Shown here piece by piece: positions 28,682 to 58,193 of a stretch of 64,000 nucleotides of DNA. Position numbers and translations under genes: made by a program. Origin of the DNA: Haliotis asinina (lineage: Eukaryota; Mollusca; Gastropoda; Lepetellida; Haliotidae); contig NC_090291.1 of NCBI RefSeq assembly GCF_037392515.1, forward strand, positions 36,913,001 through 36,977,000, given 5' to 3'. Numbering within the stretch: the first letter of the stretch is position 1; the number at the start of each line of letters is the position of its first letter. Under the pieces are notes generated by a model. The model was given only the letters and a program-made list of their open reading frames with translations, had not been told where the DNA came from and did not search any database.

Positions 28682-29026
28682 GATTCTAGAATAAGCGATC
28701 AAACAAAGTTGAAAACTTGATCTGCGGAACAACCAATTCCATATTTTATTACAGCGAAATGCAAGTTTGGGACAATTGCCACAGAACCTTTACAATCCAA
28801 ACAAATAATAAAATGTGTGATGAATTATCTCATATGATTCCTCCAATTTAATTCTGAGGCTTATCAAGATCCAACAACACAAATAATGCTATTTCGTTAT
28901 TTTGGAATTTACTTTTTGTGAAATTAGATCACAATACCGCTGAAAGGTATCGCCTACCAACGTTCTGTAATAGAAAAAGTAATGTGTAGAGTTTACGCCC
29001 CTTCAAGACTTCCGGTGTAAACAACA
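28682..29026. promoter_or_regulatory. Shared divergent promoter of PDCD5 and CCNDBP1
   Basis: Only 345 bp separate the two start codons, on opposite strands. The interval contains an ETS-type ACTTCCGG at 29008-29015. No TATA box is evident at a fitting distance. A bidirectional promoter is inferred from the spacing and not shown. Confidence 0.65.
29008..29015 (-). promoter_or_regulatory. ETS/GABP-type motif
   Basis: ACTTCCGG (CCGGAAGT on the minus strand), 12 bp before the CCNDBP1 start codon, a common site in divergent housekeeping promoters. Confidence 0.45.
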
Positions 29027-29105
29027 ATGGCGGAAAAGGGAGCGCATGCGAACGTCATGAGGAACTTAGTTGATAATTTACAGCTTGTATTGTCGCAAAT
29101 AAGAG
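29027..29105 (+). CDS. CCNDBP1: CCNDBP1 exon 1
   Basis: MAEKGAHANVMRNLVDNLQL and VLSQIR, matching the LRHLAEELRLLLPRVR region of human. The donor GTTGTC is weak, but it is the site that gives the phase fitting exon 2. Confidence 0.85.
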
Positions 29106-35100: not shown

Positions 35101-38100
35101 TTATGAGAATGCTGAACAGTCTTCGTGGTTGATATCTATCTTTATGTCACTTCTGCCACCTCTATGAGTGAGTGAGTTTAGTTGTACACTGCTTTTAGCA
35201 ACATTCCAGCAATATCATGGTTGGAGATGCCAGAAAAGGGTTTCGCACATTGTACCCACATGGGGAAATGAACCCAAGTCTTCAGCATGACGAGCAAACA
35301 CTTTAACCAGTAGGCTACCTGTTATTCTTGAGAACTCAGTCTTATTATTCTTCAGCTCAGTTTTATTCCTTCTGTAGGCTCTGGAGAGTGAAGGCCAGAC
35401 AGATGACCTCGACGAACTGCTGATTGCTGATGGGTTTGTGATGTCTAATGAAGATACATGGACAGACTCGGATAAGGAGGTCCTGGCTGCAAGCATGGGT
35501 CTCATCAAGACCGTCAAGTCCCTGCTGAAGAAGTCAAAGGAATCAGTGAAGCAGAATGCGGTGTGTGACACAGAGGCGAACATCGCTCAGCTGGATGACC
35601 TAGTGGACCACTTGGGCAACCTTAGTCCTGCTGTCGACAACCTCGCCGCCAGCCTCTACCCTCCCATGGTTTATGCCAACATCATGAAGCATGTAAGCAG
35701 ACCTCTTCATATGTAATATTCTCCATGGGGATTGTTAATGGGAATAGGTGACATATTTTGGTCGGGAGAGGGGATTAAATGGACCAGGAATATTCTCCCT
35801 GGAGAATGTGAATAAGAATAGGTGACATATTTTGGTCGGGAGAGGGGACTAAATGGACCAGGAATATTCTCCATGGAGAATGTGAATAAGAATAGGTGAC
35901 ATATTTTGGTTGGGAGAGGGGATTAAATGGATCAGGAATATTCTCCATGGAGAATGTGAATAAGAATAGGTGACATATTTTGGTCGGGAGAGGGGATTAA
36001 ATGGATCAGGAATATTCTCCATGGAGAATGTGAATAAGAATAGGTGACATATTTTGGTCGGGAGAGGGGACTAAATGGACCAGGAATATTCTCCATGGAG
36101 AATGTGAATAAGAATAGGTGACATATTTTGGTTGGGAGAGGGGATTAAATGGATCAGGAATATTCTCCATGGAGAATGTGAATAAGAATAGGTGACATAT
36201 TTTGGTTGGGAGAGGGGATTAAATGGACCAGGAATATTCTCCCTGGAGAATGTGAATAAGAATAGGTGACATATTTTGGTCGGGAGAGGGGACTAAATGG
36301 ATTAGGAATATTCTCCATGGGGATTGTTAATGGGAATAGGTGACATATTTTGGTCGGGAGAGGGGATTAAATGGATCAGGAATATTCTCCATGGAGAATG
36401 TGAATAAGAATAGGTGACATATTTTGGTCGGGAGAGGGGACTAAATGGACCAGGAATATTCTCCATGGAGAATGTGAATAAGAATAGGTGACATATTTTG
36501 GTTGGGAGAGGGGATTAAATGGATCAGGAATATTCTCCATGGAGAATGTGAATAAGAATAGGTGACATATTTTGGTTGGGAGAGGGGATTAAATGGACCA
36601 GGAATATTCTCCCTGGAGAATGTGAATAAGAATAGGTGACATATTTTGGTTGGGAGAGGGGACTAAATGGACCAGGAATATTCTCCCTGGAGAATGTGAA
36701 TAAGAATAGGTGACATATTTTGGTCGGGAGAGGGGACTAAATGGACCAGGAATATTCTCCCTGGAGAATGTGCATAAGAATAGGTGACATATTTTGGTTG
36801 GGAGAGGGGACTAAATGGACCAGGAATATTCTCCCTGGAGAATGTGAATAAGAATAGGTGACATATTTTGGTCGGGAGAGGGGACTAAATGGACCAGGAA
36901 TATTCTCCATGAAGAATGTGCATAAGAATAGGTGACATATTTTGGTCGGGAGAGGGGACTAAATGGATTAGGAATATTCTCCATGGGGATTGTTAATGGG
37001 AATAGGTGACATATTTTGGTCGGGAGAGGGGATTAAATGGATCAGGAATATTCTCCATGGAGAATGTGCATAAGAATAGGTGACATATCTTGGTCGGGAG
37101 AGGGGACTAAATGGACCAGGAATATTCTCCCTGGAGAATGTGCATAAGAATAGGTGACATATTTTGGTCGGGAGAGGGGACTAAATGGACCAGGAATATT
37201 CTCCCTGGAGAATGTGCATAAGAATAGGTGACATATTTTGGTCGGGAGAGGGGATTAAATGGATCAGGAATATTCTCCCTGGAGAATGTGCATAAGAATA
37301 GGTGACATATTTTGCTCGGGAGAGGGGACTAAATGGATTAGGAATATTCTCCATGGAGAATGTGCATAAGAATAGATGACATATTTTGGTCGGGAGAGGG
37401 GATTAAATGGATCAGGAATATTCTCCATGGAGAATGTGCATAAGAATAGGTGACATATTTTGGTCAGGAGAGGGGACTGAATGGATTAGGAATATTCTCC
37501 ATGGAGAATGTGCATAAGAATAGGTGACATATTGTTGTTGGGAGAGGGGACTAAATGGACCAGGAATATTCTCCCTGGAGAATGTGCATAAGAATAGGTG
37601 ACATATTTTGGTCGGGAGAGGGGACTGAATGGATTAGGAATATTCTCCATGGAGAATGTGCATAAGAATAGGTGACATATTTTGGTCGGGAGAGGGGATT
37701 AAATGGACCAGGAGTTTTCTCCCTGGAGAATGTGCATAAGAATAGGTGACATATTTTGGTCGGGAGAGGGGACTGAATGGATTAGGAAAATTCTCCATGG
37801 GGATTGTTAATGGGAATAGGTGACATATTTTGGTCGGGAGAGGGGATTAAATGGATCAGGAATATTCTCCCTGGAGAATGTGCATAAGAATAGGTGACAT
37901 ATTTTGGTCGGGAGAGGGGACTAAATGGATTAGGAATATTCTCCATGGAGAATGTGCATAAGAATAGATGACATATTTTGGTCGGGAGAGGGGATTAAAT
38001 GGATCAGGAATATTCTCCATGGAGAATGTGCATAAGAATAGGTGACATATTTTGGTCGGGAGAGGGGATTAAATGGACCAGGAATATTCTCTATGGAGAA

Positions 38101-41100
38101 TGTGCATAAGAATAGGTGACATATTTTGGTCGGGAGAGGGGACTAAATGGATTAGGAATATTCTCCATGGAGAATGTGCATAAGAATAGGTGACATATTT
38201 TGGTCGGGAGAGGGGACTGAATGGATTAGGAATATTCTCCCTGGAGAATGTGCATAAGAATAGGTGACATATTTTGGTCGGGAGAGGGACTAAATGGACC
38301 AGGAATATTCTCCCTGGAGAATGTGCATAAGAATAGGTGACATATTTTGGTCGGGAGAGGGGACTAAATTGATTAGGAATATTCTCCATGGGGATTGTTA
38401 ATGGGAATAGGTGACATATTTTGGTTGGGAGAGGGGATTAAATGGACCAGGAATATTCTCCCTGGAGAATGTGCATAAGAATAGGTGACATATTTTGGTG
38501 GGGAGAGGGGACTAAATGGATTAGGAATATTCTCCATGGAGAATGTGCATAAGAATAGGTGACATATTTTGGTCGGGAGAGGGGACTGAATGGATTAGGA
38601 ATATTCTCCATGGAGAATGTGCATAAGAATAGGTGACATATTTTGGTCGGGAGAGGGGACTAAATGGATTAGGAATATTCTCCATGGAGAATGTGCATAA
38701 GAATAGGTGACATATTTTGGTCGGGAGAGGGGAATGAATGGATTAGGAATATTCTCCATGGAGAATGTGCACAAGAATAGGTGACATATTTTGGTCGGGA
38801 AAGGGGATTAAATGGACCAGGAATTTTCTCCATGGAGAATGTGCATAAGAATAGGTGACATATTTTGGTCGGGAGAGGGGACTAAATGGATTAGGAATAT
38901 TCTCCATGGGGATTGTTAATGGGAATAGGTGACATATTTTGGTCGGGAGAGGGGATTAAATGGATCAGGAATATTCTCCATGGAGAATGTGCATAAGAAT
39001 AGGTGACATATTTTGGTCAGGAGAGGGGACTGAATGGATTAGGAATATTCTCCATGGAGAATGTGCATAAGAATAGGTGACATATTGTGGTTGGGAGAGG
39101 GGACTAAATGGACCAGGAATATTCTCCCTGGAGAATGTGCATAAGAATAGGTGACATATTTTGGTCGGGAGAGGGGACTGAATGGATTAGGAATATTCTC
39201 CATGGAGAATGTGCATAAGAATAGGTGACATATTTTGGTCGGGAGAGGGGATTAAATGGACCAGGAGTTTTCTCCCTGGAGAATGTGCATAAGAATAGGT
39301 GACATATTTTGGTCGGGAGAGGGGACTGAATGGATTAGGAATATTCTCCATGGGGATTGTTAATGGGAATAGGTGACATATTTTGGTCGGGAGAGGGGAT
39401 TAAATGGATCAGGAATATTCTCCATGGAGAATGTGCTTAAGAATAGGTGACATATTTTGGTCGGGAGAGGGGACTGAATGGATTAGGAATATTCTCCATG
39501 GGGATTGTGGGTAAGATTAGGTGACATATTTTGGTCGGGAGAGGGGATTAAATGGATCAGGAATATTCTCCCTGGAGAATGTGCATAAGAATAGGTGACA
39601 TATTTTGGTCGGGAGAGGGGACTGAATGGATTAGGAATATTCTCCATGGGGATTGTTAATGGGAATAGGTGACATATTTTGGTCGGGAGAGGGGATTAAA
39701 TGGATCAGGAATATTCTCCATGGAGAATGTGCTTAAGAATAGGTGACATATTTTGGTCGGGAGAGGGGACTAAATGGACCAGGAATATTCTCCCTGGAGA
39801 ATGTGAATAAGAATAGGTGACATATTTTGGTCGGGAGAGGGGACTAAATGGACCAGGAATATTCTCCATGAAGAATGTGCATGAGAATAGGTGACATATT
39901 TTGGTCGGGAGAGGGGATTGAATGGATTAGGAATATTCTCCATGGGGATTGTGGGTAAGAATAGGGGACATATTTTGGTCGGGAGAGGGGATTAAATGGA
40001 TCAGGAATATTCTCCATGGAGAATGTGCATAAGAATAGGTGACATATTTTGGTCGGGAGAGGGGACTAAATGGACCAGGAATATTCTCCATGGAGAATGT
40101 GCATAAGAATAGGTGACATATTTTGGTCGGGAGAGGGGACTAAATGGATTAGGAATATTCTCCATGGAGAATGTGCATAAGAATAGGTGACATATTTTGG
40201 TCGGGAGAGGGGACTGAATGGATTAGGAATATTCTCCATGGAGAATGTGCATAAGAATAGGTGACATATTTTGGTCGGGAGAGGGACTAAATGGACCAGG
40301 AATATTCTCCCTGGAGAATGTGCATAAGAATAGGTGACATATTTTGGTCGAGAGAGGGGACTAAATTGATTAGGAATATTCTCCATGGGGATTGTTGATG
40401 GGAATAGGTGACATATTTTGGTCGGGAGAGGGGATTAAATGGATCAGGAATATTCTCCCTGGAGAATGTGCATAAGAATAGGTGACATATTTTGGTGGGG
40501 AGAGGGGACTAAATGGATTAGGAATATTCTCCATGGAGAATGTGCATAAGAATAGGTGACATATTTTGGTCGGGAGAGGGGACTGAATGGATTAGGAATA
40601 TTCTCCATGGAGAATGTGCATAAGAATAGGTGACATATTTTGGTCGGGAGAGGGGACTAAATGGATTAGGAATATTCTCCATGGAGAATGTGCATAAGAA
40701 TAGGTGACATATTTTGGTCGGGAGAGGGGACTGAATGGATTAGGAATATTCTCCATGGAGAATGTGCATAAGAATAGGTGACATATTTTGGTCGGGAAAG
40801 GGGACTAAATGGATTAGGAATATTCTCCATGGGGATTGTTAATGGGAATAGGTGACATATTTTGGTCGGGAGAGGGGATTAAATGGATCAGGAATATTCT
40901 CCATGGAGAATGTGCTTAAGAATAGGTGACATATTTTGGTCGGGAGAGGGGACTAAATGGACCAGGAATATTCTCCCTGGAGAATGTGAATAAGAATAGG
41001 TGACATATTTTGGTCGGGAGAGGGGACTAAATGGACCAGGAATATTCTCCATGAAGAATGTGCATGAGAATAGGTGACATATTTTGGTCGGGAGAGGGGA

Positions 41101-44100
41101 TTGAATGGATTAGGAATATTCTCCATGGGGATTGTGGGTAAGAATAGGGGACATATTTTGGTCGGGAGAGGGGATTAAATGGATCAGGAATATTCTCCAT
41201 GGAGAATGTGCATAAGAATAGGTGACATATTTTGGTCGGGAGAGGGGACTAAATGGACCAGGAATATTCTCCATGGAGAATGTGCATAAGAATAGGTGAC
41301 ATATTTTGGTCGGGAGAGGGGACTAAATGGATTAGGAATATTCTCCATGGAGAATGTGCATAAGAATAGGTGACATATTTTGGTCGGGAGAGGGGACTGA
41401 ATGGATTAGGAATATTCTCCATGGAGAATGTGCATAAGAATAGGTGACATATTTTGGTCGGGAGAGGGGACTGAATGGATTAGGAATATTCTCCATGGAG
41501 AATGTGCATAAGAATAGGTGACATATTTTGGTCGGGAGAGGGGATTAAATGGACCAGGAGTTTTCTCCCTGGAGAATGTGCATAAGAATAGGTGACATAT
41601 TTTGGTCGGGAGAGGGGACTGAATGGATTAGGAATTTTCTCCATGGGGATTGTTAATGGGAATAGGTGACATATTTTGGTCGGGAGAGGGGATTAAATGG
41701 ATCAGGAATATTCTCCATGGAGAATGTGCTTAAGAATAGGTGACATATTTTGGTCGGGAGAGGGGACTGAATGGATTAGGAATATTCTCCATGGGGATTG
41801 TGGGTAAGATTAGGTGACATATTTTGGTCGGGAGAGGGGATTAAATGGATCAGGAATATTCTCCCTGGAGAATGTGCATAAGAATAGGTGACATATTTTG
41901 GTCGGGAGAGGGGACTGAATGGATTAGGAATATTCTCCATGGGGATTGTTAATGGGAATAGGTGACATATTTTGGTCGGGAGAGGGGATTAAATGGATCA
42001 GGAATATTCTCCATGGGGATTGTGGGTAAGAATAGGGGACATATTTTGGTCGGGAGAGGGGATTAAATGGATCAGGAATATTCTCCATGGAGAATGTGCA
42101 TAAGAATAGGTGACATATTTTGGTCGGGAGAGGGGACTAAATGGACCAGGAATATTCTCCATGGAGAATGTGCATAAGAATAGGTGACATATTTTGGTCG
42201 GGAGAGGGGACTGAATGGATTAGGAATATTCTCCATGGGGATTGTTAATGGGAATAGGTGACATATTTTGGTCGGGAGAGGGGATTAAATGGATCAGGAA
42301 TATTCTCCATGGAGAATGTGCTTAAGAATAGGTGACATATTTTGGTCGGGAGAGGGGACTAAATGGACCAGGAATATTCTCCCTGGAGAATGTGAATAAG
42401 AATAGGTGACATATTTTGGTCGGGAGAGGGGACTAAATGGACCAGGAATATTCTCCATGAAGAATGTGCATGAGAATAGGTGACATATTTTGGTCGGGAG
42501 AGGGGATTGAATGGATTAGGAATATTCTCCATGGGGATTGTGGGTAAGAATAGGGGACATATTTTGGTCGGGAGAGGGGATTAAATGGATCAGGAATATT
42601 CTCCATGGAGAATGTGCATAAGAATAGGTGACATATTTTGGTCGGGAGAGGGGACTAAATGGACCAGGAATATTCTCCATGGAGAATGTGCATAAGAATA
42701 GGTGACATATTTTGGTCGGGAGAGGGGACTAAATGGATTAGGAATATTCTCCATGGAGAATGTGCATAAGAATAGGTGACATATTTTGGTCGGGAGAGGG
42801 GACTGAATGGATTAGGAATATTCTCCATGGAGAATGTGCATAAGAATAGGTGACATATTTTGGTCGGGAGAGGGACTAAATGGACCAGGAATATTCTCCC
42901 TGGAGAATGTGCATAAGAATAGGTGACATATTTTGGTCGAGAGAGGGGACTAAATTGATTAGGAATATTCTCCATGGGGATTGTTGATGGGAATAGGTGA
43001 CATATTTTGGTCGGGAGAGGGGATTAAATGGATCAGGAATATTCTCCCTGGAGAATGTGCATAAGAATAGGTGACATATTTTGGTGGGGAGAGGGGACTA
43101 AATGGATTAGGAATATTCTCCATGGAGAATGTGCATAAGAATAGGTGACATATTTTGGTCGGGAGAGGGGACTGAATGGATTAGGAATATTCTCCATGGA
43201 GAATGTGCATAAGAATAGGTGACATATTTTGGTCGGGAGAGGGGACTAAATGGATTAGGAATATTCTCCATGGAGAATGTGCATAAGAATAGGTGACATA
43301 TTTTGGTCGGGAGAGGGGACTGAATGGATTAGGAATATTCTCCCTGGAGAATGTGCATAAGAATAGGTGACATATTTTGGTCGGGAAAGGGGACTAAATG
43401 GATTAGGAATATTCTCCATGGGGATTGTTAATGGGAATAGGTGACATATTTTGGTCGGGAGAGGGGATTAAATGGATCAGGAATATTCTCCATGGAGAAT
43501 GTGCTTAAGAATAGGTGACATATTTTGGTCGGGAGAGGGGACTAAATGGACCAGGAATATTCTCCCTGGAGAATGTGAATAAGAATAGGTGACATATTTT
43601 GGTCGGGAGAGGGGACTAAATGGACCAGGAATATTCTCCATGAAGAATGTGCATGAGAATAGGTGACATATTTTGGTCGGGAGAGGGGATTGAATGGATT
43701 AGGAATATTCTCCATGGGGATTGTGGGTAAGAATAGGGGACATATTTTGGTCGGGAGAGGGGATTAAATGGATCAGGAATATTCTCCATGGAGAATGTGC
43801 ATAAGAATAGGTGACATATTTTGGTCGGGAGAGGGGACTAAATGGACCAGGAATATTCTCCATGGAGAATGTGCATAAGAATAGGTGACATATTTTGGTC
43901 GGGAGAGGGGACTAAATGGATTAGGAATATTCTCCATGGAGAATGTGCATAAGAATAGGTGACATATTTTGGTCGGGAGAGGGGACTGAATGGATTAGGA
44001 ATATTCTCCATGGAGAATGTGCATAAGAATAGGTGACATATTTTGGTCGGGAGAGGGACTAAATGGACCAGGAATATTCTCCCTGGAGAATGTGCATAAG

Positions 44101-47100
44101 AATAGGTGACATATTTTGGTCGAGAGAGGGGACTAAATTGATTAGGAATATTCTCCATGGGGATTGTTGATGGGAATAGGTGACATATTTTGGTCGGGAG
44201 AGGGGATTAAATGGATCAGGAATATTCTCCCTGGAGAATGTGCATAAGAATAGGTGACATATTTTGGTGGGGAGAGGGGACTAAATGGATTAGGAATATT
44301 CTCCATGGAGAATGTGCATAAGAATAGGTGACATATTTTGGTCGGGAGAGGGGACTGAATGGATTAGGAATATTCTCCATGGAGAATGTGCATAAGAATA
44401 GGTGACATATTTTGGTCGGGAGAGGGGACTAAATGGATTAGGAATATTCTCCATGGAGAATGTGCATAAGAATAGGTGACATATTTTGGTCGGGAGAGGG
44501 GACTGAATGGATTAGGAATATTCTCCATGGAGAATGTGCATAAGAATAGGTGACATATTTTGGTCGGGAGAGGGGACTAAATGGATTAGGAATATTCTCC
44601 ATGGAGAATGTGCATAAGAATAGGTGACATATTTTGGTCGGGAGAGGGGACTGAATGGATTAGGAATATTCTCCATGGAGAATGTGCATAAGAATAGGTG
44701 ACATATTTTGGTCGGGAAAGGGGACTAAATGGATTAGGAATATTCTCCATGGGGATTGTTAATGGGAATAGGTGACATATTTTGGTTGGGAGAGGGGATT
44801 AAATGGATCAGGAATATTCTCCATGGAGAATGTGCATAAGAATAGGTGACATATTTTGGTCGGGAGAGGGGACTGAATGGATTAGGAATATTCTCCATGG
44901 AGAATGTACATAAGAATAGGTGACATATTTTGGTCGGGAGAGGGGACTAAATGGATTAGGAATATTCTCCCTGGAGAATGTGCATAAGAATAGGTGACAT
45001 ATTTTGGTCGGGAGAGGGGACTGAATGGATTAGGAATATTCTCCATGGAGAATGTGCATAAGAATAGGTGACATATTTTGGTCGGGAGAGGGGACTAAAT
45101 GGATTAGGAATATTCTCCATGGGGATTGTTAATGGGAATAGGTGACATATTTTGGTCGGGAGAGGGGATTAAATGGATCAGGAATATTCTCCATGGAGAA
45201 TGTGCATAAGAATAGGTGACATATTTTGGTCAGGAGAGGGGACTGAATGGATTAGGAATATTCTCCATGGAGAATGTACATAAGAATAGGTGACATATTT
45301 TGGTCGGGAGAGGGGACTAAATGGATTAGGAATATTCTCCCTGGAGAATGTGCATAAGAATAGGTGACATATTTTGGTCGGGAGAGGGGACTGAATGGAT
45401 TAGGAATATTCTCCATGGAGAATGTGCATAAGAATAGGTGACATATTTTGGTCGGGAGAGGGGACTAAATGGATTAGGAATTTTCTCCATGGGGATTGTT
45501 AATGGGAATAGGTGACATATTTTGGTCGGGAGAGGGGATTAAATGGATCAGGAATATTCTCCATGGAGAATGTGCATAAGAATAGGTGACATATTTTGGT
45601 CAGGAGAGGGGACTGAATGGATTAGGAATATTCTCCATGGAGAATGTGCATAAGAATAGGTGACATATTGTGGTTGGGAGAGGGGACTAAATGGACCAGG
45701 AATATTCTCCCTGGAGAATGTGCATAAGAATAGGTGACATATTTTGGTCGGGAGAGGGGACTGAATGGATTAGGAATATTCTCCATGGAGAATGTGCATA
45801 AGAATAGGTGACATATTTTGGTCGGGAGAGGGGATTAAATGGACCAGGAGTTTTCTCCCTGGAGAATGTGCATAAGAATAGGTGACATATTTTGGTCGGG
45901 AGAGGGGACTGAATGGATTAGGAATATTCTCCATGGGGATTGTTAATGGGAATAGGTGACATATTTTGGTCGGGAGAGGGGATTAAATGGATCAGGAATA
46001 TTCTCCATGGAGAATGTGCATAAGAATAGGTGACATATTTTGGTCAGGAGAGGGGACTGAATGGATTAGGAATATTCTCCATGGAGAATGTGCATAAGAA
46101 TAGGTGACATATTTTGGTCGGGAGAGGGGACTAAATGGATTAGGAATATTCTCCCTGGAGAATGTGCATAAGAATAGGTGACATATTTTGGTCGGGAGAG
46201 GGGACTGAATGGATTAGGAATATTCTCCATGGAGAATGTGCATAAGAATAGGTGACATATTTTGGTCGGGAGAGGGGACTAAATGGATTAGGAATATTCT
46301 CCATGGGGATTGTTAATGGGAATAGGTGACATATTTTGGTCGGGAGAGGGGATTAAATGGATCAGGAATATTCTCCATGGAGAATGTGCATAAGAATAGG
46401 TGACATATTTTGGTCAGGAGAGGGGACTGAATGGATTAGGAATATTCTCCATGGAGAATGTACATAAGAATAGGTGACATATTTTGGTCGGGAGAGGGGA
46501 CTAAATGGATTAGGAATATTCTCCCTGGAGAATGTGCATAAGAATAGGTGACATATTTTGGTCGGGAGAGGGGACTGAATGGATTAGGAATATTCTCCAT
46601 GGAGAATGTGCATAAGAATAGGTGACATATTTTGGTCGGGAGAGGGGACTAAATGGATTAGGAATTTTCTCCATGGGGATTGTTAATGGGAATAGGTGAC
46701 ATATTTTGGTCGGGAGAGGGGATTAAATGGATCAGGAATATTCTCCATGGAGAATGTGCATAAGAATAGGTGACATATTTTGGTCAGGAGAGGGGACTGA
46801 ATGGATTAGGAATATTCTCCATGGAGAATGTGCATAAGAATAGGTGACATATTGTGGTTGGGAGAGGGGACTAAATGGACCAGGAATATTCTCCCTGGAG
46901 AATGTGCATAAGAATAGGTGACATATTTTGGTCGGGAGAGGGGACTGAATGGATTAGGAATATTCTCCATGGAGAATGTGCATAAGAATAGGTGACATAT
47001 TTTGGTCGGGAGAGGGGATTAAATGGACCAGGAGTTTTCTCCCTGGAGAATGTGCATAAGAATAGGTGACATATTTTGGTCGGGAGAGGGGACTGAATGG

Positions 47101-50100
47101 ATTAGGAATATTCTCCATGGGGATTGTTAATGGGAATAGGTGACATATTTTGGTCGGGAGAGGGGATTAAATGGATCAGGAATATTCTCCATGGAGAATG
47201 TGCATAAGAATAGGTGACATATTTTGGTCAGGAGAGGGGACTGAATGGATTAGGAATATTCTCCATGGAGAATGTGCATAAGAATAGGTGACATATTTTG
47301 GTCGGGAGAGGGGACTAAATGGATTAGGAATATTCTCCCTGGAGAATGTGCATAAGAATAGGTGACATATTTTGGTCGGGAGAGGGGACTGAGTGGATTA
47401 GGAATATTCTCCATGGAGAATGTGCATAAGAATAGGTGACATATTTTGGTCGGGAGAGGGGACTAAATGGATTAGGAATATTCTCCATGGGGATTGTTAA
47501 TGGGAATAGGTGACATATTTTGGTCGGGAGAGGGGATTAAATGGATCAGGAATATTCTCCATGGAGAATGTGCATAAGAATAGGTGACATATTTTGGTCA
47601 GGAGAGGGGACTGAATGGATTAGGAATCTTCTCCATGGAGAATGTGCATAAGAATAGGTGACATATTGTGGTTGGGAGAGGGGACTAAATGGACCAGGAA
47701 TATTCTCCCTGGAGAATGTGCATAAGAATAGGTGACATATTTTGGTCGGGAGAGGGGACTGAATGGATTAGGAATATTCTCCATGGAGAATGTGCATAAG
47801 AATAGGTGACATATTTTGGTCGGGAGAGGGGATTAAATGGACCAGGAGTTTTCTCCCTGGAGAATGTGCATAAGAATAGGTGACATATTTTGGTCGGGAG
47901 AGGGGACTGAATGGATTAGGAATATTCTCCATGGGGATTGTTAATGGGAATAGGTGACATATTTTGGTCGGGAGAGGGGATTAAATGGATCAGGAATATT
48001 CTCCATGGAGAATGTGCTTAAGAATAGGTGACATATTTTGGTCGGGAGAGGGGACTGAATGGATTAGGAATATTCTCCATGGGGATTGTGGGTAAGATTA
48101 GGTGACATATTTTGGTCGGGAGAGGGGATTAAATGGATCAGGAATATTCTCCCTGGAGAATGTGCATAAGAATAGGTGACATATTTTTGTCGGGAGAGGG
48201 GACTGAATGGATTAGGAATATTCTCCATGGGGATTGTTAATGGGAATAGGTGACATATTTTGGTCGGGAGAGGGGATTAAATGGATCAGGAATATTCTCC
48301 ATGGAGAATGTGCTTAAGAATAGGTGACATATTTTGGTCGGGAGAGGGGACTAAATGGACCAGGAATATTCTCCCTGGAGAATGTGAATAAGAATAGGTG
48401 ACATATTTTGGTCGGGAGAGGGGACTAAATGGACCAGGAATATTCTCCATGAAGAATGTGCATGAGAATAGGTGACATATTTTGGTCGGGAGAGGGGATT
48501 GAATGGATTAGGAATATTCTCCATGGGGATTGTGGGTAAGAATAGGGGACATATTTTGGTCGGGAGAGGGGATTAAATGGATCAGGAATATTCTCCATGG
48601 AGAATGTGCATAAGAATAGGTGACATATTTTGGTCGGGAGAGGGGACTAAATGGACCAGGAATATTCTCCATGGAGAATGTGCATAAGAATAGGTGACAT
48701 ATTTTGGTCGGGAGAGGGGACTAAATGGATTAGGAATATTCTCCATGGAGAATGTGCATAAGAATAGGTGACATATTTTGGTCGGGAGAGGGACTAAATG
48801 GACCAGGAATATTCTCCCTGGAGAATGTGCATAAGAATAGGTGACATATTTTGGTCGAGAGAGGGGACTAAATTGATTAGGAATATTCTCCCTGGAGAAT
48901 GTGCATAAGAATAGGTGACATATTTTGGTCGAGAGAGGGGACTAAATTGATTAGGAATATTCTCCATGGGGATTGTTGATGGGAATAGGTGACATATTTT
49001 GGTCGGGAGAGGGGATTAAATGGATCAGGAATATTCTCCCTGGAGAATGTGCATAAGAATAGGTGACATATTTTGGTGGGGAGAGGGGACTAAATGGATT
49101 AGGAATATTCTCCATGGAGAATGTGCATAAGAATAGGTGACATATTTTGGTCGGGAGAGGGGACTGAATGGATTAGGAATATTCTCCATGGAGAATGTGC
49201 ATAAGAATAGGTGACATATTTTGGTCGGGAGAGGGGACTAAATGGATTAGGAATATTCTCCCTGGAGAATGTGCATAAGAATAGGTGACATATTTTGGTC
49301 GGGAGAGGGGACTGAATGGATTAGGAATATTCTCCATGGAGAATGTGCATAAGAATAGGTGACATATTTTGGTCGGGAAAGGGGATTAAATGGACCAGGA
49401 ATTTTCTCCATGGAGAATGTGCATAAGAATAGGTGACATATTTTGGTCGGGAGAGGGGACTAAATGGATCAGGAATATTCTCCATGGAGAATGTGCATAA
49501 GAATAGGTGACATATTTTGGTCAGGAGAGGGGACTAAATTGATTAGGAATATTCTCCATGGGGATTGTTGATGGGAATAGGTGACATATTTTGGTCGGGA
49601 GAGGGGATTAAATGGATCAGGAATATTCTCCATGGAGAATGTGCATAAGAATAGGTGACATATTTTGGTCAGGAGAGGGGACTGAATGGATTAGGAATAT
49701 TCTCCATGGAGAATGTGCATAAGAATAGGTGACATATTGTTGTTGGGAGAGGGGACTAAATGGACCAGGAATATTCTCCCTGGAGAATGTGCATAAGAAT
49801 AGGTGACATATTTTGGTCGGGAGAGGGGACTGAATGGATTAGGAATATTCTCCATGGAGAATGTGCATAAGAATAGGTGACATATTTTGGTCGGGAGAGG
49901 GGATTAAATGGACCAGGAGTTTTCTCCCTGGAGAATGTGCATAAGAATAGGTGACATATTTTGGTCGGGAGAGGGGACTGAATGGATTAGGAATATTCTC
50001 CATGGGGATTGTTAATGGGAATAGGTGACATATTTTGGTCGGGAGAGGGGATTAAATGGATCAGGAATATTCTCCATGGAGAATGTGCTTAAGAATAGGT

Positions 50101-53100
50101 GACATATTTTGGTCGGGAGAGGGGACTGAATGGATTAGGAATATTCTCCATGGGGATTGTGGGTAAGATTAGGTGACATATTTTGGTCGGGAGAGGGGAT
50201 TAAATGGATCAGGAATATTCTCCCTGGAGAATGTGCATAAGAATAGGTGACATATTTTGGTCGGGAGAGGGGACTGAATGGATTAGGAATATTCTCCATG
50301 GGGATTGTTAATGGGAATAGGTGACATATTTTGGTCGGGAGAGGGGATTAAATGGATCAGGAATATTTTCCATGGAGAATGTGCTTAAGAATAGGTGACA
50401 TATTTTGGTCGGGAGAGGGGACTAAATGGACCAGGAATATTCTCCCTGGAGAATATGAATAAGAATAGGTGACATATTTTGGTCGGGAGAGGGGACTAAA
50501 TGGACCAGGAATATTCTCCATGAAGAATGTGCATGAGAATAGGTGACATATTTTGGTCGGGAGAGGGGATTGAATGGATTAGGAATATTCTGCATGGGGA
50601 TTGTGGGTAAGAATAGGTGACATATTTTGGTCGGGAGAGGGGATTAAATGGGTTAGGAATATTCTCCATGGAGATTGTGCATAAGAATAGGTGACATATT
50701 TTGGTCGGGAGAGGGGACTAAATGGACCAGGAATATTCTCCATGGAGAATGTGCATAAGAATAGGTGACATATTTTGGTCGGGAGAGGGGACTAAATGGA
50801 CCAGGAATATTCTCCCTGGAGAATGTGAATAAGAATAGGTGACATATTTTGGTCGGGAGAGGGGACTAAATGGACCAGGAATATTCTCCATGAAGAATGT
50901 GCATAAGAATAGATGACATATTTTGGTCGGGAGAGGGGACTGAATGGATTAGGAATATTCTCCATGAAGAATGTGCATAAGAATAGGTGACATATTTTGG
51001 TCGGGAGAGGGGACTAAATGGATTAGGAATATTCTCCATGGGGATTGTGGGTAAGAATAGGTGACATATTTTGGTCGGGAAAGGGGACTAAATGGATTAG
51101 GAATATACTCCATGGGGATTGTGGGTAAGAATAGGTGACATATTGTGGTTGGGAAAGGGGAGTAAATGGACCAGGAATATTCTCCATGGAGAATGTGCAT
51201 AAGAATAGGTGACATGTTTTGGTCGGGAGAGGGGACTGAATGGATTAGGAATATTCTCCATGGAGAATGTGCATAAGAATAGGTGACATATTTTGGTCGG
51301 GAGAGGGGACTAAATGGATTAGGAATATTCTCCCTGGAGAATGTGCATAAGAATAGGTGACATATTTTGGTCGGGAGAGGGGACTGAATGGATTAGGAAT
51401 ATTCTCCATGGAGAATGTGCATAAGAATAGGTGACATATTTTGGTCGGGAAAGGGGATTAAATGGACCAGGAATTTTCTCCATGGAGAATGTGCATAAGA
51501 ATAGGTGACATATTTTGGTCGGGAGAGGGGACTAAATGGATCAGGAATATTCTCCATGGAGAATGTGCATAAGAATAGGTGACATATTTTGGTCAGGAGA
51601 GGGGACTAAATTGATTAGGAATATTCTCCATGGGGATTGTTGATGGGAATAGGTGACATATTTTGGTCGGGAGAGGGGATTAAATGGATCAGGAATATTC
51701 TCCATGGAGAATGTGCATAAGAATAGGTGACATATTTTGGTCAGGAGAGGGGACTGAATGGATTAGGAATATTCTCCATGGAGAATGTGCATAAGAATAG
51801 GTGACATATTGTTGTTGGGAGAGGGGACTAAATGGACCAGGAATATTCTCCCTGGAGAATGTGCATAAGAATAGGTGACATATTTTGGTCGGGAGAGGGG
51901 ACTAAATGGATTAGGAATATTCTCCCTGGAGAATGTGCATAAGAATAGGTGACATATTTTGGTCGGGAGAGGGGACTGAATGGATTAGGAATATTCTCCA
52001 TGGAGAATGTGCATAAGAATAGGTGACATATTTTGGTCGGGAAAGGGGATTAAATGGACCAGGAATTTTCTCCATGGAGAATGTGCATAAGAATAGGTGA
52101 CATATTTTGGTCGGGAGAGGGGACTAAATGGATCAGGAATATTCTCCATGGAGAATGTGCATAAGAATAGGTGACATATTTTGGTCAGGAGAGGGGACTA
52201 AATTGATTAGGAATATTCTCCATGGGGATTGTTGATGGGAATAGGTGACATATTTTGGTCGGGAGAGGGGATTAAATGGATCAGGAATATTCTCCATGGA
52301 GAATGTGCATAAGAATAGGTGACATATTTTGGTCAGGAGAGGGGACTGAATGGATTAGGAATATTCTCCATGGAGAATGTGCATAAGAATAGGTGACATA
52401 TTGTTGTTGGGAGAGGGGACTAAATGGACCAGGAATATTCTCCCTGGAGAATGTGCATAAGAATAGGTGACATATTTTGGTCAGGAGAGGGGACTAAATT
52501 GATTAGGAATATTCTCCATGGGGATTGTTGATGGGAATAGGTGACATATTTTGGTGGGGAGAGGGGACTAAATGGATTAGGAATATTCTCCATGGAGAAT
52601 GTGCATAAGAATAGGTGACATATTTTGGTCGGGAGAGGGGACTGAATGGATTAGGAATATTCTCCATGGAGAATGTGCATAAGAATAGGTGACATATTTT
52701 GGTCGGGAGAGGGGACTAAATGGATTAGGAATATTCTCCCTGGAGAATGTGCATAAGAATAGGTGACATATTTTGGTCGGGAGAGGGGACTGAATGGATT
52801 AGGAATATTCTCCATGGAGAATGTGCATAAGAATAGGTGACATATTTTGGTCGGGAAAGGGGATTAAATGGACCAGGAATTTTCTCCATGGAGAATGTGC
52901 ATAAGAATAGGTGACATATTTTGGTCGGGAGAGGGGACTAAATGGATCAGGAATATTCTCCATGGAGAATGTGCATAAGAATAGGTGACATATTTTGGTC
53001 AGGAGAGGGGACTAAATTGATTAGGAATATTCTCCATGGGGATTGTTGATGGGAATAGGTGACATATTTTGGTCGGGAGAGGGGATTAAATGGATCAGGA

Positions 53101-56100
53101 ATATTCTCCATGGAGAATGTGCATAAGAATAGGTGACATATTTTGGTCAGGAGAGGGGACTGAATGGATTAGGAATATTCTCCATGGAGAATGTGCATAA
53201 GAATAGGTGACATATTGTTGTTGGGAGAGGGGACTAAATGGACCAGGAATATTCTCCCTGGAGAATGTGCATAAGAATAGGTGACATATTTTGGTCGGGA
53301 GAGGGGACTGAATGGATTAGGAATATTCTCCATGGAGAATGTGCATAAGAATAGGTGACATATTTTGGTCGGGAGAGGGGATTAAATGGACCAGGAGTTT
53401 TCTCCCTGGAGAATGTGCATAAGAATAGGTGACATATTTTGGTCGGGAGAGGGGACTGAATGGATTAGGAATATTCTCCATGGGGATTGTTAATGGGAAT
53501 AGGTGACATATTTTGGTCGGGAGAGGGGATTAAATGGATCAGGAATATTCTCCATGGAGAATGTGCTTAAGAATAGGTGACATATTTTGGTCGGGAGAGG
53601 GGACTGAATGGATTAGGAATATTCTCCATGGGGATTGTGGGTAAGATTAGGTGACATATTTTGGTCGGGAGAGGGGATTAAATGGATCAGGAATATTCTC
53701 CCTGGAGAATGTGCATAAGAATAGGTGACATATTTTGGTCGGGAGAGGGGACTGAATGGATTAGGAATATTCTCCATGGGGATTGTTAATGGGAATAGGT
53801 GACATATTTTGGTCGGGAGAGGGGATTAAATGGATCAGGAATATTTTCCATGGAGAATGTGCTTAAGAATAGGTGACATATTTTGGTCGGGAGAGGGGAC
53901 TAAATGGACCAGGAATATTCTCCCTGGAGAATATGAATAAGAATAGGTGACATATTTTGGTCGGGAGAGGGGACTAAATGGACCAGGAATATTCTCCATG
54001 AAGAATGTGCATGAGAATAGGTGACATATTTTGGTCGGGAGAGGGGATTGAATGGATTAGGAATATTCTGCATGGGGATTGTGGGTAAGAATAGGTGACA
54101 TATTTTGGTCGGGAGAGGGGATTAAATGGGTTAGGAATATTCTCCATGGAGATTGTGCATAAGAATAGGTGACATATTTTGGTCGGGAGAGGGGACTAAA
54201 TGGACCAGGAATATTCTCCATGGAGAATGTGCATAAGAATAGGTGACATATTTTGGTCGGGAGAGGGGACTAAATGGACCAGGAATATTCTCCCTGGAGA
54301 ATGTGAATAAGAATAGGTGACATATTTTGGTCGGGAGAGGGGACTAAATGGACCAGGAATATTCTCCATGAAGAATGTGCATAAGAATAGATGACATATT
54401 TTGGTCGGGAGAGGGGACTGAATGGATTAGGAATATTCTCCATGAAGAATGTGCATAAGAATAGGTGACATATTTTGGTCGGGAGAGGGGACTAAATGGA
54501 TTAGGAATATTCTCCATGGGGATTGTGGGTAAGAATAGGTGACATATTTTGGTCGGGAAAGGGGACTAAATGGATTAGGAATATACTCCATGGGGATTGT
54601 GGGTAAGAATAGGTGACATATTGTGGTTGGGAAAGGGGAGTAAATGGACCAGGAATATTCTCCATGGAGAATGTGCATAAGAATAGGTGACATGTTTTGG
54701 TCGGGAGAGGGGACTGAATGGATTAGGAATATTCTCCATGGAGAATGTGCATAAGAATAGGTGACATATTTTGGTCGGGAGAGGGGACTAAATGGATTAG
54801 GAATATTCTCCCTGGAGAATGTGCATAAGAATAGGTGACATATTTTGGTCGGGAGAGGGGACTGAATGGATTAGGAATATTCTCCATGGAGAATGTGCAT
54901 AAGAATAGGTGACATATTTTGGTCGGGAAAGGGGATTAAATGGACCAGGAATTTTCTCCATGGAGAATGTGCATAAGAATAGGTGACATATTTTGGTCGG
55001 GAGAGGGGACTAAATGGATCAGGAATATTCTCCATGGAGAATGTGCATAAGAATAGGTGACATATTTTGGTCAGGAGAGGGGACTAAATTGATTAGGAAT
55101 ATTCTCCATGGGGATTGTTGATGGGAATAGGTGACATATTTTGGTCGGGAGAGGGGATTAAATGGATCAGGAATATTCTCCATGGAGAATGTGCATAAGA
55201 ATAGGTGACATATTTTGGTCAGGAGAGGGGACTGAATGGATTAGGAATATTCTCCATGGAGAATGTGCATAAGAATAGGTGACATATTGTTGTTGGGAGA
55301 GGGGACTAAATGGACCAGGAATATTCTCCCTGGAGAATGTGCATAAGAATAGGTGACATATTTTGGTCGGGAGAGGGGACTGAATGGATTAGGAATATTC
55401 TCCATGGAGAATGTGCATAAGAATAGGTGACATATTTTGGTCGGGAGAGGGGATTAAATGGACCAGGAGTTTTCTCCCTGGAGAATGTGCATAAGAATAG
55501 GTGACATATTTTGGTCGGGAGAGGGGACTGAATGGATTAGGAATATTCTCCATGGGGATTGTTAATGGGAATAGGTGACATATTTTGGTCGGGAGAGGGG
55601 ATTAAATGGATCAGGAATATTCTCCATGGAGAATGTGCTTAAGAATAGGTGACATATTTTGGTCGGGAGAGGGGACTGAATGGATTAGGAATATTCTCCA
55701 TGGGGATTGTGGGTAAGATTAGGTGACATATTTTGGTCGGGAGAGGGGATTAAATGGATCAGGAATATTCTCCCTGGAGAATGTGCATAAGAATAGGTGA
55801 CATATTTTGGTCGGGAGAGGGGACTGAATGGATTAGGAATATTCTCCATGGGGATTGTTAATGGGAATAGGTGACATATTTTGGTCGGGAGAGGGGATTA
55901 AATGGATCAGGAATATTTTCCATGGAGAATGTGCTTAAGAATAGGTGACATATTTTGGTCGGGAGAGGGGACTAAATGGACCAGGAATATTCTCCCTGGA
56001 GAATATGAATAAGAATAGGTGACATATTTTGGTCGGGAGAGGGGACTAAATGGACCAGGAATATTCTCCATGAAGAATGTGCATGAGAATAGGTGACATA

Positions 56101-58193
56101 TTTTGGTCGGGAGAGGGGATTGAATGGATTAGGAATATTCTGCATGGGGATTGTGGGTAAGAATAGGTGACATATTTTGGTCGGGAGAGGGGATTAAATG
56201 GGTTAGGAATATTCTCCATGGAGATTGTGCATAAGAATAGGTGACATATTTTGGTCGGGAGAGGGGACTAAATGGACCAGGAATATTCTCCATGGAGAAT
56301 GTGCATAAGAATAGGTGACATATTTTGGTCGGGAGAGGGGACTAAATGGACCAGGAATATTCTCCCTGGAGAATGTGAATAAGAATAGGTGACATATTTT
56401 GGTCGGGAGAGGGGACTAAATGGACCAGGAATATTCTCCATGAAGAATGTGCATAAGAATAGATGACATATTTTGGTCGGGAGAGGGGACTGAATGGATT
56501 AGGAATATTCTCCATGAAGAATGTGCATAAGAATAGGTGACATATTTTGGTCGGGAGAGGGGACTAAATGGATTAGGAATATTCTCCATGGGGATTGTGG
56601 GTAAGAATAGGTGACATATTTTGGTCGGGAAAGGGGACTAAATGGATTAGGAATATACTCCATGGGGATTGTGGGTAAGAATAGGTGACATATTGTGGTT
56701 GGGAAAGGGGAGTAAATGGACCAGGAATATTCTCCATGGAGAATGTGCATAAGAATAGGTGACATGTTTTGGTCGGGAGAGGGGACTGAATGGATTAGGA
56801 ATATTCTCCATGAAGAATGTGCATAAGAATAGGTGACATATTTTGGTCGGGAGAGGGGACTAGATGGATTTGGAATATTCTCCATGAAGAATGTGCATAA
56901 GAATAGGTGACATATTTTGGTCGGGAGAGGGGACTAAATGGACCAGGAATATTCTCCATGAAGAATGTGCATAAGATAAGGTGACATATTTTGGTCGGGA
57001 GAGGGGACTGAATGGATTAGGAATATTCTCCATGGGGATTGTGGGTAAGAATAGCTCCCGGCAACCAATTCTGGTCAGAAGTGATTAAATAGATCAGGAA
57101 TATTTTTCATGAGGATTCTGTGTAGGAATATATTAGCTGGAAGAAGTGACTAAACTAATCAGATTGTCCGGAATAGTGACTAAGTTGGATTATTTCTCAT
57201 TGTACCCAGTACAACAGTGTTGATTGTTCTTCAGGTTATCAATCACTTGACTGTGTGATCCAAATGTGATTATTTTCAAGCCTCTACAATGTAGCTGGAT
57301 TAAGAACAAGTTTTATTACATACGCACAAAACATTTGCAAAGATCTGGGCAAGAATTGATCTTCAGTAACCCATCATTGTCATAAGAGGCGACTAACGGT
57401 ATCCAGTGGTCAGACTCGCTAACTTGGTTGACAGATGTCATCGTATTCCATTTGTGCAGATTGATACTCATGGTGTTGATCACTGGATTGTCTGGTCCAG
57501 GCTTAAGTATTTACAGACTGCCACCATATACTTGGGAATATTTTCTAAGTGCGGCATAAAACAAATCACTCTCGTACAAAGTCTACAGAATTACTATTTT
57601 ATAAATTGCATTAGTCTGTTTACATAACAAACTCCTCACACTGCATATTGCAGACGGATGAGCTATCAGTGTGCATAGAGAAGTACCTACAGTTCCTCAA
57701 GTGAGTACTTGACACACACTATGTAAATCAAGCTTTCATTATTTGATCCTAATGCATACTTCATAGATGTTCCAGTCCTAATTATTGTCATGAAATATAA
57801 GTTTCTTTTCATCAACATTATCATCATATGAACAGTATTATTATTCAAACTAATATCTCTTTAACATCCTGCTCTAAGAAGAGTGCTAATGCACAGGATT
57901 GGGTGGTCAGACTCACCGACTTGGTTGACATGTCATCATATCCCCATTGCTTATATCGTTGCTTATTATGTTGATCATTGGATTGTTTGGTCCAGACATG
58001 ATTGTTTACAAACCACTGCGATATAGCTTTTTTCTCGGAGTGGCATTATCAACAAACACACCAATTACAACTGTCTTTCTGCTGCAGGCAGTCTCACATG
58101 ACTGGGGAGGGAGACCAACAGTGGCTGGAGTTCCTTCTTAAAGCCAGACAACACAACCGTGACAAAGTCTACAGTCTTGTTCACAAAAGTTAG
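29027..58193 (+). CDS. CCNDBP1: Cyclin-D1-binding protein 1 (CCNDBP1/GCIP), ten exons
   Basis: Exons 29027-29105, 30585-30647, 31170-31249, 31372-31453, 32201-32294, 33166-33236, 33986-34062, 35378-35692, 57654-57700 and 58088-58193 join in frame to 337 residues, against 360 in human. Conserved stretches in order: FTAISNEATKLSMAFSKPP, LALVSAYYSFPKTQG with MTLRKALKTAV, ATGIVWHGADIL, DNQRASLAIVEETSELVRDA, and the signature NIAQLDDLVDHLGNLSPAVD with LAASLYPPM. In vertebrates the protein binds cyclin D1 and GRAP2 and acts as a helix-loop-helix negative regulator of cell-cycle entry. Its central acidic stretch is shorter here (EGQTDDLDELL). The start is the first in-frame ATG. All introns are GT/AG. 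Intron 8 is about 22 kb and is filled by satellite DNA. Confidence 0.95.
29633..29778. repeat. Telomere-like CCCTAA motifs in about 40-bp units
   Basis: Four times the sequence has AACCCTAACCCTAAGGAT followed by a CATAAAGGGTGC-like spacer. Each unit carries two or three CCCTAA hexamers. It lies in CCNDBP1 intron 1. Confidence 0.85.
30003..30212 (+). mobile_element. SINE family 2, internal deletion
   Basis: A well-kept head GGTCCGGGGTAGAATAGGCC, AAAAGGCGACTATGCATG and AGGATCGGGTGATCAGGC, then a jump from ACACGTCATCGG straight to TCCAGACTCGATTATTTACA. The tail is GCAGCGTAAAACTAAACTC. Confidence 0.9.
30585..30647 (+). CDS. CCNDBP1: CCNDBP1 exon 2
   Basis: Acceptor CTGTTGCAG, donor GTATGG. It codes EGESQRDEKDVFDRQAYWNH, aligned with GEAQETTEEFNREMFWRRL of human. 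Confidence 0.93.
   Translation, partial: KESRRGMKRMCLIVRLIGIT
31170..31249 (+). CDS. CCNDBP1: CCNDBP1 exon 3
   Basis: Acceptor CATTTTCAG, donor GTGAGT. It codes GTVFTAISNEATKLSMAFSK and PPAPPPE. Confidence 0.95.
31372..31453 (+). CDS. CCNDBP1: CCNDBP1 exon 4
   Basis: Acceptor GTTACAG, donor GTAAAA. It codes HSQPMITSLEKATLALVSAY and YSFPKTQ, matching FIAVYYLLPKDQG of human. Confidence 0.95.
31488..31875. repeat. About 25-bp minisatellite with palindromic core
   Basis: Copies of GTTGACACACAGGTATGTCA plus TGTAT. The GACACACAGGTGTGTC core is near-palindromic. The units become irregular at the right end. It lies in CCNDBP1 intron 4. Confidence 0.9.
32201..32294 (+). CDS. CCNDBP1: CCNDBP1 exon 5
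   Basis: Acceptor TCTTTGACAG, donor GTAGGT. It codes MTLRKALKTAVLNIIESVRT and LAQNIADFDL, matching ITLRKLVRGATLDIV of human. Confidence 0.95.
32546..32700 (-). mobile_element. SINE family 2, 5'-truncated
   Basis: GAGTGAGTGACTGAGTTTAA, CACTCAGCTGTATTCCAGCT and CTGACAATCCATTGATCAAC. Confidence 0.9.
33166..33236 (+). CDS. CCNDBP1: CCNDBP1 exon 6
   Basis: Acceptor TTGTTGACAG after a TTA/TTG-rich stretch, donor GTGAGA. It codes SPEQLRATGIVWHGADILST and LPK. Ser-Pro-Glu and the Val-Trp pair are kept from human. Confidence 0.93.
33986..34062 (+). CDS. CCNDBP1: CCNDBP1 exon 7
   Basis: Acceptor ATCTCCACAG, donor GTGAGA. It codes DNQRASLAIVEETSELVRDA and LHELQE. The last codons and the donor are duplicated downstream at 34228. 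Confidence 0.95.
34119..34225. repeat. GAGT/GAGC tetranucleotide microsatellite
   Basis: (GTGA)n followed by (GCGA)n, lying between the two copies of the exon 7 end. Confidence 0.95.
34228..34313. repeat. Duplicated end of CCNDBP1 exon 7 and its donor
   Basis: CATTACATGAACTGCAAAAG, GTGAGACTGGGAGATATTGT and TACAGCTCACCCAGT repeat 34044-34118 with few changes. The copy carries a second intact donor-like GTGAGA but no acceptor, so it is probably not an exon. Confidence 0.85.
34737..34926 (+). mobile_element. SINE family 2
   Basis: GTGACTAACGGGATCGGGCG, TGCTGTTGATTGCTGGATTG, AAGCTGGAATATAGCAGAG and a CAAAACTCACTCACC tail. Confidence 0.85.
35165..35325 (-). mobile_element. SINE family 1
   Basis: GAGTGAGTGAGTTTAGTTGT, CTGCTTTTAGCAACATTCCA, TGTACCCACATGGGGAAATG and the inverse A-box region CACTTTAACCAGTAGGCTAC. 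It ends 50 bp before exon 8. Confidence 0.9.
35378..35692 (+). CDS. CCNDBP1: CCNDBP1 exon 8 (largest, signature region)
   Basis: Acceptor CCTTCTGTAG, donor GTAAGC; 105 codons in phase 0. It has an acidic start (ALESEGQTDDLDELL), a basic helix (TVKSLLKKSKESVKQ), then NIAQLDDLVDHLGNLSPAVD and NLAASLYPPMVYANIMKH, which follow human VAQLDDIVDISDEISPSVDD and LALSIYPPM closely. Confidence 0.97.
39871..43643. repeat. Higher-order repeats of 1183 and 1406 bp in the satellite
   Basis: The rare monomer with CATGAAGAATGTGCATGAGA occurs at 39871, 41054, 42460 and 43643: steps of 1183 (16 monomers minus 1 base), 1406 (19 monomers) and 1183. The single-base shortening comes from the GAGAGGGAC monomers near 40281, 42871 and 44051. 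The monomers between markers repeat in the same order over large parts. Confidence 0.9.
48452..57053. repeat. Higher-order repeats of about 2072 and 3478 bp in the satellite
   Basis: The same marker monomer recurs at 48452, 50523, 54001 and 56073: steps of 2071, 3478 (47 monomers) and 2072 (28 monomers). A unique GAATATACTCC monomer recurs at 51101, 54579 and 56651 with the same 3478 and 2072 steps. The copies look nearly identical, hence recent. Confidence 0.92.
57054..57175. repeat. Diverged edge monomers of the satellite
   Basis: GAAGTGATTAAATAGATCAG, GAATATTTTTCATGAGGATT and a further GACTAAACTAATCAG show about two badly degraded units past the sharp end of the homogeneous array. The left edge shows no such units. 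Confidence 0.75.
57346..57572 (+). mobile_element. SINE family 2
   Basis: AAGAATTGATCTTCAGTAAC, AAGAGGCGACTAACGGTATC, GTGTTGATCACTGGATTGTC and GTGCGGCATAAAACAAATC. It ends 80 bp before exon 9. Confidence 0.9.
57654..57700 (+). CDS. CCNDBP1: CCNDBP1 exon 9
   Basis: Acceptor ATATTGCAG, donor GTGAGT. It codes TDELSVCIEKYLQFL, aligned with the KLVSVLKKALEIT region of human. Confidence 0.9.
57880..58055 (+). mobile_element. SINE family 2, degraded
   Basis: GATTGGGTGGTCAGACTCAC, ATGTTGATCATTGGATTGTT and TGGTCCAGACATGATTG. It ends close to the exon 10 acceptor. Confidence 0.8.
58088..58193 (+). CDS. CCNDBP1: CCNDBP1 exon 10 (terminal)
   Basis: Acceptor TTTCTGCTGCAG. It codes QSHMTGEGDQQWLEFLLKAR and QHNRDKVYSLVHKS, then TAG, matching EDSWIPLLINAIDHCMNRI near the human C-terminus. 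Confidence 0.92.

What the first reader, a model, noticed from the sequence alone, without database searches (positions are those of the whole stretch)
35714..57053. A 21-kb, 74-bp satellite array fills one intron of a conserved cell-cycle gene
About 288 uninterrupted, co-oriented monomers make up nearly all of CCNDBP1 intron 8. Homogeneous satellites of this size are usually expected in heterochromatin rather than inside a gene with intact exons on both sides. The gene must be transcribed and spliced across it, and I do not know of this monomer being described.
Basis: partly seen in the sequence, partly recalled or inferred. Interest (0 to 1): 0.75.

Follow-up and report, generated by a model that had tools for sequence, protein, structure and literature searches.

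The report
Giant private minisatellite inside an intron
One intron of an intact cell-cycle-related gene in an animal genome has swollen to 22 kb because a local 74-base repeat was copied about 288 times; we found the repeat at no other place in that genome, so it looks like an overgrown local minisatellite rather than part of a satellite DNA family, and it most likely has no job of its own.

Summary
A 74-bp repeat, 288 monomers in one orientation, fills 35715-57054. It is 97.2% of intron 8 of an open ten-exon CCNDBP1/GCIP gene, the only copy found in the 1.14-Gb genome.

"Satellite" does not fit. Genome-wide, 288 of 288 matches to the 24-bp core (up to 3 mismatches) lie in this array, on one strand. 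Three other long arrays met by sampling are high-copy: 30,205, 31,023 and 4,977 matches on both strands. So this is a single-locus minisatellite of satellite size.

It grew by copying blocks: 78% lies in exact internal repeats of at least 400 bp, the longest 2,847 bp; identical neighbours are rarer than chance (2 against 9.2). Decayed monomers flank its right edge. Its transcribed strand offers no acceptor-like site by a simple rule, so splicing across it is plausible; it was not shown.

Closest known: the human CACNA1C intronic 30-bp VNTR, 3-30+ kb (PMC13131567). This is a new member of that kind. Reads and RNA-seq are needed.

The parts
35715..57054 (+). 74-bp tandem array, 288 monomers, single locus
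57055..57195 (+). decayed monomers at the right edge (about one and a half to two units)
   Evidence: local alignment score 95.5 against 49.0 for the reversed consensus over 57055-57260; 80% match to the array over query 14-76
49057..51903 (+). longest exact internal block, repeated at 52535-55381
   Evidence: 2,847 bp identical, shift of 47 monomers
35693..57653 (+). CCNDBP1 intron 8
   Evidence: GT-AG, frame kept
35378..35692 (+). CCNDBP1 exon 8
57654..57700 (+). CCNDBP1 exon 9
   Evidence: too short to match on its own
29027..58193 (+). CCNDBP1 (GCIP), start codon to stop codon, ten exons
   Evidence: 337-aa frame, Pfam PF13324 and PF20936

Best explanation
A short local repeat inside intron 8 of CCNDBP1 expanded in place into a 21-kb single-locus minisatellite. 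Shown: one locus, one orientation, decayed copies at the right edge, a mosaic of exact internal block copies. Inferred: it grew mainly by out-of-register exchange or repair copying of blocks of many monomers (exact blocks seen here are 0.4-2.8 kb) rather than by single-monomer slippage; it is transcribed as intron and removed by splicing from the exon 8 donor to the exon 9 acceptor; it is tolerated because its transcribed strand offers no acceptor-like and few donor-like sites; it has no function of its own, though it may delay completion of the transcript.
For: Single locus: 24-bp core, up to 3 mismatches, 288 of 288 genome matches in the array, 0 on the other strand, reversed-pattern control 1+1; 37-bp pattern 274 of 274; 43-bp pattern 228 of 228. 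Contrast: arrays of 201, 172 and about 553 bp give 30,205, 31,023 and 4,977 matches on both strands. The small intron-4 minisatellite of the same gene is likewise private, 9 of 9. Blocks: 78.4% of the array in exact repeats of 400 bp or more; identical neighbours 2 against a shuffle mean of 9.2, P 0.0025. Decayed edge. Open single-copy gene. Splice-quiet strand: 0 YAG sites with at least 10 of 16 pyrimidines, against 7.8 per kb on + left of the array and 254 sites in the array's reverse strand.
Against: No reads or RNA were available, so length, joining and splicing are unproved. Splice-quietness belongs to one 74-bp monomer: at 7.8 sites per kb a random 74-bp stretch has none about 56% of the time (my arithmetic), so it shows compatibility, not selection; two of the nine true acceptors also miss the threshold (9 of 16). 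The pattern searches reach about 87% identity, so older relatives elsewhere could be missed; the flank search scores only the best candidates, and a DNA search with the array itself could not be scored.
Confidence: 0.85

Rival explanations
1. Assembly artefact: the array is joined to the gene wrongly, or its length is wrong.
For: The array is longer than most single long reads (recalled) and holds exact internal repeats of up to 2,847 bp, which invite collapse or duplication. No reads could be examined.
Against: No N in the window; the exons on both sides make one open frame and no second gene copy was found; the monomer has no other locus from which it could have been misjoined; decayed monomers sit at the right edge.
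Confidence: 0.07
2. The array has a function: it slows or regulates CCNDBP1 transcription through length, R-loops, G-quadruplexes or RNA structure.
For: GC skew +0.53 along the array, against at most 0.24 (absolute) in 120 sampled 2-kb windows; 276 two-tetrad G4-like matches on the transcribed-sense strand, against 0.40 per kb on + outside it; G4Hunter at or above 1.2 in 10.3% of 25-nt windows; one two-monomer RNA folds at z -4.6. Length of CACNA1C TRACT is linked to expression in two of 49 human tissues (PMC13131567 section 14).
Against: G is only 32%; no R-loop-forming sequence by a QmRLFS-like rule and no three-tetrad motif (the rule also found none that passed fully outside the array). The second fold tested on + is only z -1.8. 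No Rfam match. All these are properties of one monomer that was copied.
Confidence: 0.08
3. It is one array of a dispersed satellite or of a transposable element that carries tandem repeats.
For: Size and homogeneity like a satellite; long high-copy arrays are common in this genome.
Against: No second locus at up to 3 mismatches in 24 bp and none for the decayed monomers.
Confidence: 0.02

Closest known systems
Human CACNA1C intronic 30-bp VNTR (TRACT), PMC13131567; abstract, sections 12 and 14 read
   Same: Tandem array in one intron, same size class (3-30+ kb; allele groups near 6 and 24 kb), many monomer variants.
   Different: 30-bp unit against 74 bp. TRACT is argued to have grown through runs of identical units; here identical neighbours are depleted and exact kilobase blocks dominate. 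Allele variation is known there, unknown here.
Drosophila kl-3 and kl-5 gigantic introns, PMC6508621; abstract and passages read
   Same: Tandem repeats inside introns, transcribed in line with exons.
   Different: Megabases of simple satellite on the Y chromosome, against 21 kb of a private 74-bp unit in a gene that is otherwise about 7.8 kb from start to stop.
High-copy arrays of the same genome (201, 172, about 553 bp)
   Same: Long head-to-tail arrays.
   Different: 4,977 to 31,023 matches on both strands against 288 on one strand at one locus.
Ordinary minisatellite, for example the intron-4 repeat of the same gene (31492-31865)
   Same: Private to this gene (9 of 9), non-coding.
   Different: Under 400 bp against 21 kb.

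Membership tests
Minisatellite / VNTR locus | tandem units of about 10-100 bp, head to tail | tested here: met
   74 bp x 288, all +
Minisatellite / VNTR locus | single genomic locus | tested here: met
   288 of 288 core matches inside the array
Minisatellite / VNTR locus | length differs between individuals | not testable with these tools
   one assembly, no reads
Satellite DNA family | long homogeneous array | tested here: met
   21,340 bp, mean pairwise identity 92.5%
Satellite DNA family | arrays at several loci, high genomic copy number | tested here: not met
   one locus; contrast
Satellite DNA family | heterochromatic location | not testable with these tools
   no chromatin data; it lies inside an open gene near PDCD5
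Repeat carried by a transposable element | same repeat in dispersed element copies | tested here: not met
   no second locus
Switch-region-like R-loop tract | G-rich non-template strand within an intron | tested here: inconclusive
   skew +0.53 but G only 32%
Switch-region-like R-loop tract | R-loop-forming G clusters | tested here: not met
   0 by a QmRLFS-like rule
Ribozyme-bearing tandem repeat | match to a ribozyme family | tested here: not met
   0 Rfam matches at E up to 1 over 35300-57700

The most novel reading that the evidence does not exclude
A change that gave the monomer a perfect 16-bp dyad made the array self-driving: hairpin or cruciform breaks on a G-rich transcribed strand were repaired by copying whole blocks, so that dyad-bearing monomers spread from a non-dyad ancestor and swelled the intron to 22 kb in a recent burst. 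The intron would be a natural system for palindrome-driven block amplification inside a gene that must stay functional. For: the dyad arises in 0.055% of shuffles of the consensus, the decayed flank monomer has the non-dyad state (G15, T18), and block copies are exact. Against: only 127 of 288 monomers have a perfect dyad, 60 keep the G15/T18 state and are spread along the array, and one decayed copy is thin evidence of polarity.
Probability: 0.1. Interest if true: 0.6.

Novelty: new member of a known kind. Interest (0 to 1): 0.36.

Why it matters
It is a clean case of a minisatellite reaching satellite size at one locus inside a gene whose coding frame stays open. It bears on two questions: how a new tandem array is born and grows before it spreads, and what a monomer must lack (splice sites in the transcribed strand) for an intron to tolerate it. 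Its exact kilobase blocks make recent growth datable once several individuals and related species are read.

Tried and rejected
Tried without result: a DNA search of the genome with part of the array could not be scored, so patterns were used. tRNA scan, 0. Rfam on the array, 0. Longest open frames in the array: 36 codons on +, 147 on -, not pursued. Paper searches for abalone satellites, abalone genomes, intronic minisatellites, molluscan euchromatic satellites, monomer letters, CCNDBP1 with tandem repeats and intronic VNTRs gave nothing on this array (listings only). The species was not identified: the interspersed repeats look like those of abalone or another vetigastropod, which is recalled and rests on no call. 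The black abalone assembly of PMC9709981 (passages) differs in size, 1,182,252,637 against 1,143,192,487 bases.

Considered and rejected: dispersed satellite and element-borne repeat (no second locus), ribozyme repeat (no Rfam match), strict R-loop-forming sequence (0 by rule). The lack of acceptor-like sites is not claimed as selection, because it rests on one 74-bp unit.

Limits of the background sample: 40 hand-chosen round-number places, not random. 4 of 20 ten-kb stretches were tandem throughout (L017, L021, L026, L030) and 0 of 20 two-kb stretches (where periods above 1,000 would be missed). Three of the four arrays were counted genome-wide; L017 (period 1,487) was not. Place lists are capped at 100: those are all on C4, those on C3 and C11, those on C1 to C9, so many loci are shown for the last two families, and high copy number on both strands for the first.

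Full report
What is there. TRF reports one array at 35715-57054: period 74, 288.4 copies, 91% matches between neighbours, 0% indels. Anchoring on a conserved 16-mer gives 288 monomers, all on the + strand, with 282 spacings of 74 and 5 of 73. There are 67 monomer sequences; mean pairwise identity is 92.5% and minimum 80% over the 283 monomers of 74 bp. The window has no N.

Where it is. Ten exons between 29027 and 58193, set by eye from GT-AG borders and frame, join into a 1,014-bp open frame of 337 aa. All 9 genome matches to the protein are this gene's own exons; no second copy was found. Intron 8 spans 35693-57653, 21,961 bp. The array takes 21,340 bp of it (97.2%), starting 22 bp after the donor and ending 599 bp before exon 9. 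The other eight introns are 122 to 1,479 bp. Divergent and upstream lies PDCD5 (ATG at 28681, minus strand; Pfam PF01984, 1.8e-32), about 345 bp from the CCNDBP1 start codon.

It is not a satellite family. Three patterns were searched over the whole 1.143-Gb genome. The 24-bp core with up to 3 mismatches gave 288 forward and 0 reverse, with 1+1 for the reversed control; the array alone holds 288. The 37-bp pattern with up to 2 mismatches gave 274, all in the array. The 43-bp pattern with up to 3 gave 228, all in the array. The right flank, which contains decayed monomers, found only the array for that part of the query. For comparison I took 20 hand-chosen 10-kb stretches: four were tandem throughout, L017, L021, L026 and L030. 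Twenty further 2-kb stretches held none. Long arrays are thus not rare in this genome, which lowers the surprise of size alone. But the three that I counted are high-copy on both strands: 15,615+14,590 matches (201 bp), 18,541+12,482 (172 bp) and 3,028+1,949 (about 553 bp). The 74-bp array behaves instead like the small intron-4 minisatellite of the same gene, which is also private (9 of 9 at up to 2 mismatches).

How it grew. Neighbouring monomers are not specially alike: identity at lag 1 is 91.7%, and the best lag up to 32 is 28 monomers at 93.6%. Only 2 neighbouring pairs are identical against 9.2 expected from shuffled order, P 0.0025. By contrast 78.4% of the array lies inside exact repeats of 400 bp or more: the longest is 2,847 bp (49057-51903 = 52535-55381), and a 2,118-bp block occurs three times. 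Copying of blocks of many monomers explains this; single-unit slippage does not. Zero differences in 2,847 bp mean that the last copying was recent or that copies are still being homogenised. At the left end, 16 of the first 24 monomers have A at position 23, against 0 to 5 in each later group of 24, and 17 of the 27 monomers seen only once lie among the first 48. Beyond the right end, sequence to about 57195 aligns to the monomer; 57055-57260 scores 95.5 against 49.0 for the reversed consensus. I find no such trace left of the array (46.5 against 43.0). This fits an array born in place, though only the right edge is visibly old.

How the gene lives with it. By simple rules (YAG with at least 10 of 16 pyrimidines; at least 7 of 9 donor consensus bases) the transcribed-sense strand of the array has 0 acceptor-like and 22 donor-like sites in 21.3 kb, against 7.8 and 3.3 per kb on + left of it. 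Its reverse strand would have 254 acceptor-like sites and 0 donor-like ones. Seven of the nine true acceptors reach the threshold, two have 9 of 16; six of the nine true donors reach 7 of 9. So this orientation is easy on splicing. Since all monomers descend from one, the independent evidence is one 74-bp unit, and a random unit would lack an acceptor about 56% of the time; I do not claim selection. Splicing across the array is inferred from the open frame, not shown.

Other properties. The coding strand has GC skew of 0.51-0.54 in the ten 2-kb bins inside the array, beyond all of 120 sampled 2-kb windows (largest 0.24); short tandem repeats elsewhere in the window reach 0.78. There are 276 two-tetrad G4-like matches, nearly one per monomer, but no three-tetrad motif and no R-loop-forming sequence by a QmRLFS-like rule. 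The consensus contains a perfect 16-bp dyad, found in 0.055% of 20,000 shuffles; it is perfect in 127 of 288 monomers, off by one pair in 92, by two in 60 and by three in 9, and the decayed flank monomer has the non-dyad state. Two-monomer RNAs of the + strand fold at z -4.6 in one place and -1.8 in another; the - strand at -1.8 and -0.3. Rfam gave no match. These are leads, not evidence of function.

Known relatives. The closest in kind is TRACT, the 30-bp VNTR in an intron of human CACNA1C, 3-30+ kb with allele groups near 6 and 24 kb (PMC13131567; abstract, sections 12 and 14). That work argues for growth through runs of identical units, unlike the block mosaic here. Drosophila kl-3 and kl-5 show that intronic tandem repeats, even megabases, are transcribed with their exons (PMC6508621; abstract and passages). 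No paper on this array was found in searches, which cover an open-licence library only.

Verdict. Observation confirmed; interpretation partly supported. It is a very large single-locus intronic minisatellite, a new member of a known kind, most likely without a function of its own. Open: read support for its length, polymorphism, splicing evidence, and its state in related species.

Noticed in passing
31492-31865 (intron 4): A 25-bp minisatellite beginning about 40 bp after exon 4 carries all 10 copies of CAGGTATGT in the window, an 8-of-9 match to the donor consensus, and is private to this gene (9 of 9): an array of decoy donors just after a real one.
   Followed up: partly
34036-34140 and 34220-34324: The 3' end of exon 7 with its donor and the start of intron 7 is duplicated (105 nt, 89% identical) beyond a GAGT microsatellite.
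   Followed up: no
61517-62025: Probable miniature inverted-repeat element: two 94-nt arms, 97% complementary, 321 nt apart.
   Followed up: no
29640-29760 (intron 1): Telomere-like CCCTAACCCTAA stretches inside a 32-bp tandem repeat.
   Followed up: no
L030 (C12:25.0 Mb), L021 (C4:30.0 Mb), L026 (C9:20.0 Mb), L017 (C2:30.0 Mb): Arrays of period 172, 201, about 553 and 1,487 bp fill whole 10-kb samples. The first three are high-copy; the 172- and 201-bp ones may be centromeric, which is a guess.
   Followed up: partly
28681-29027: PDCD5 (minus) and CCNDBP1 (plus) start about 345 bp apart, head to head, so they may share a promoter region.
   Followed up: partly
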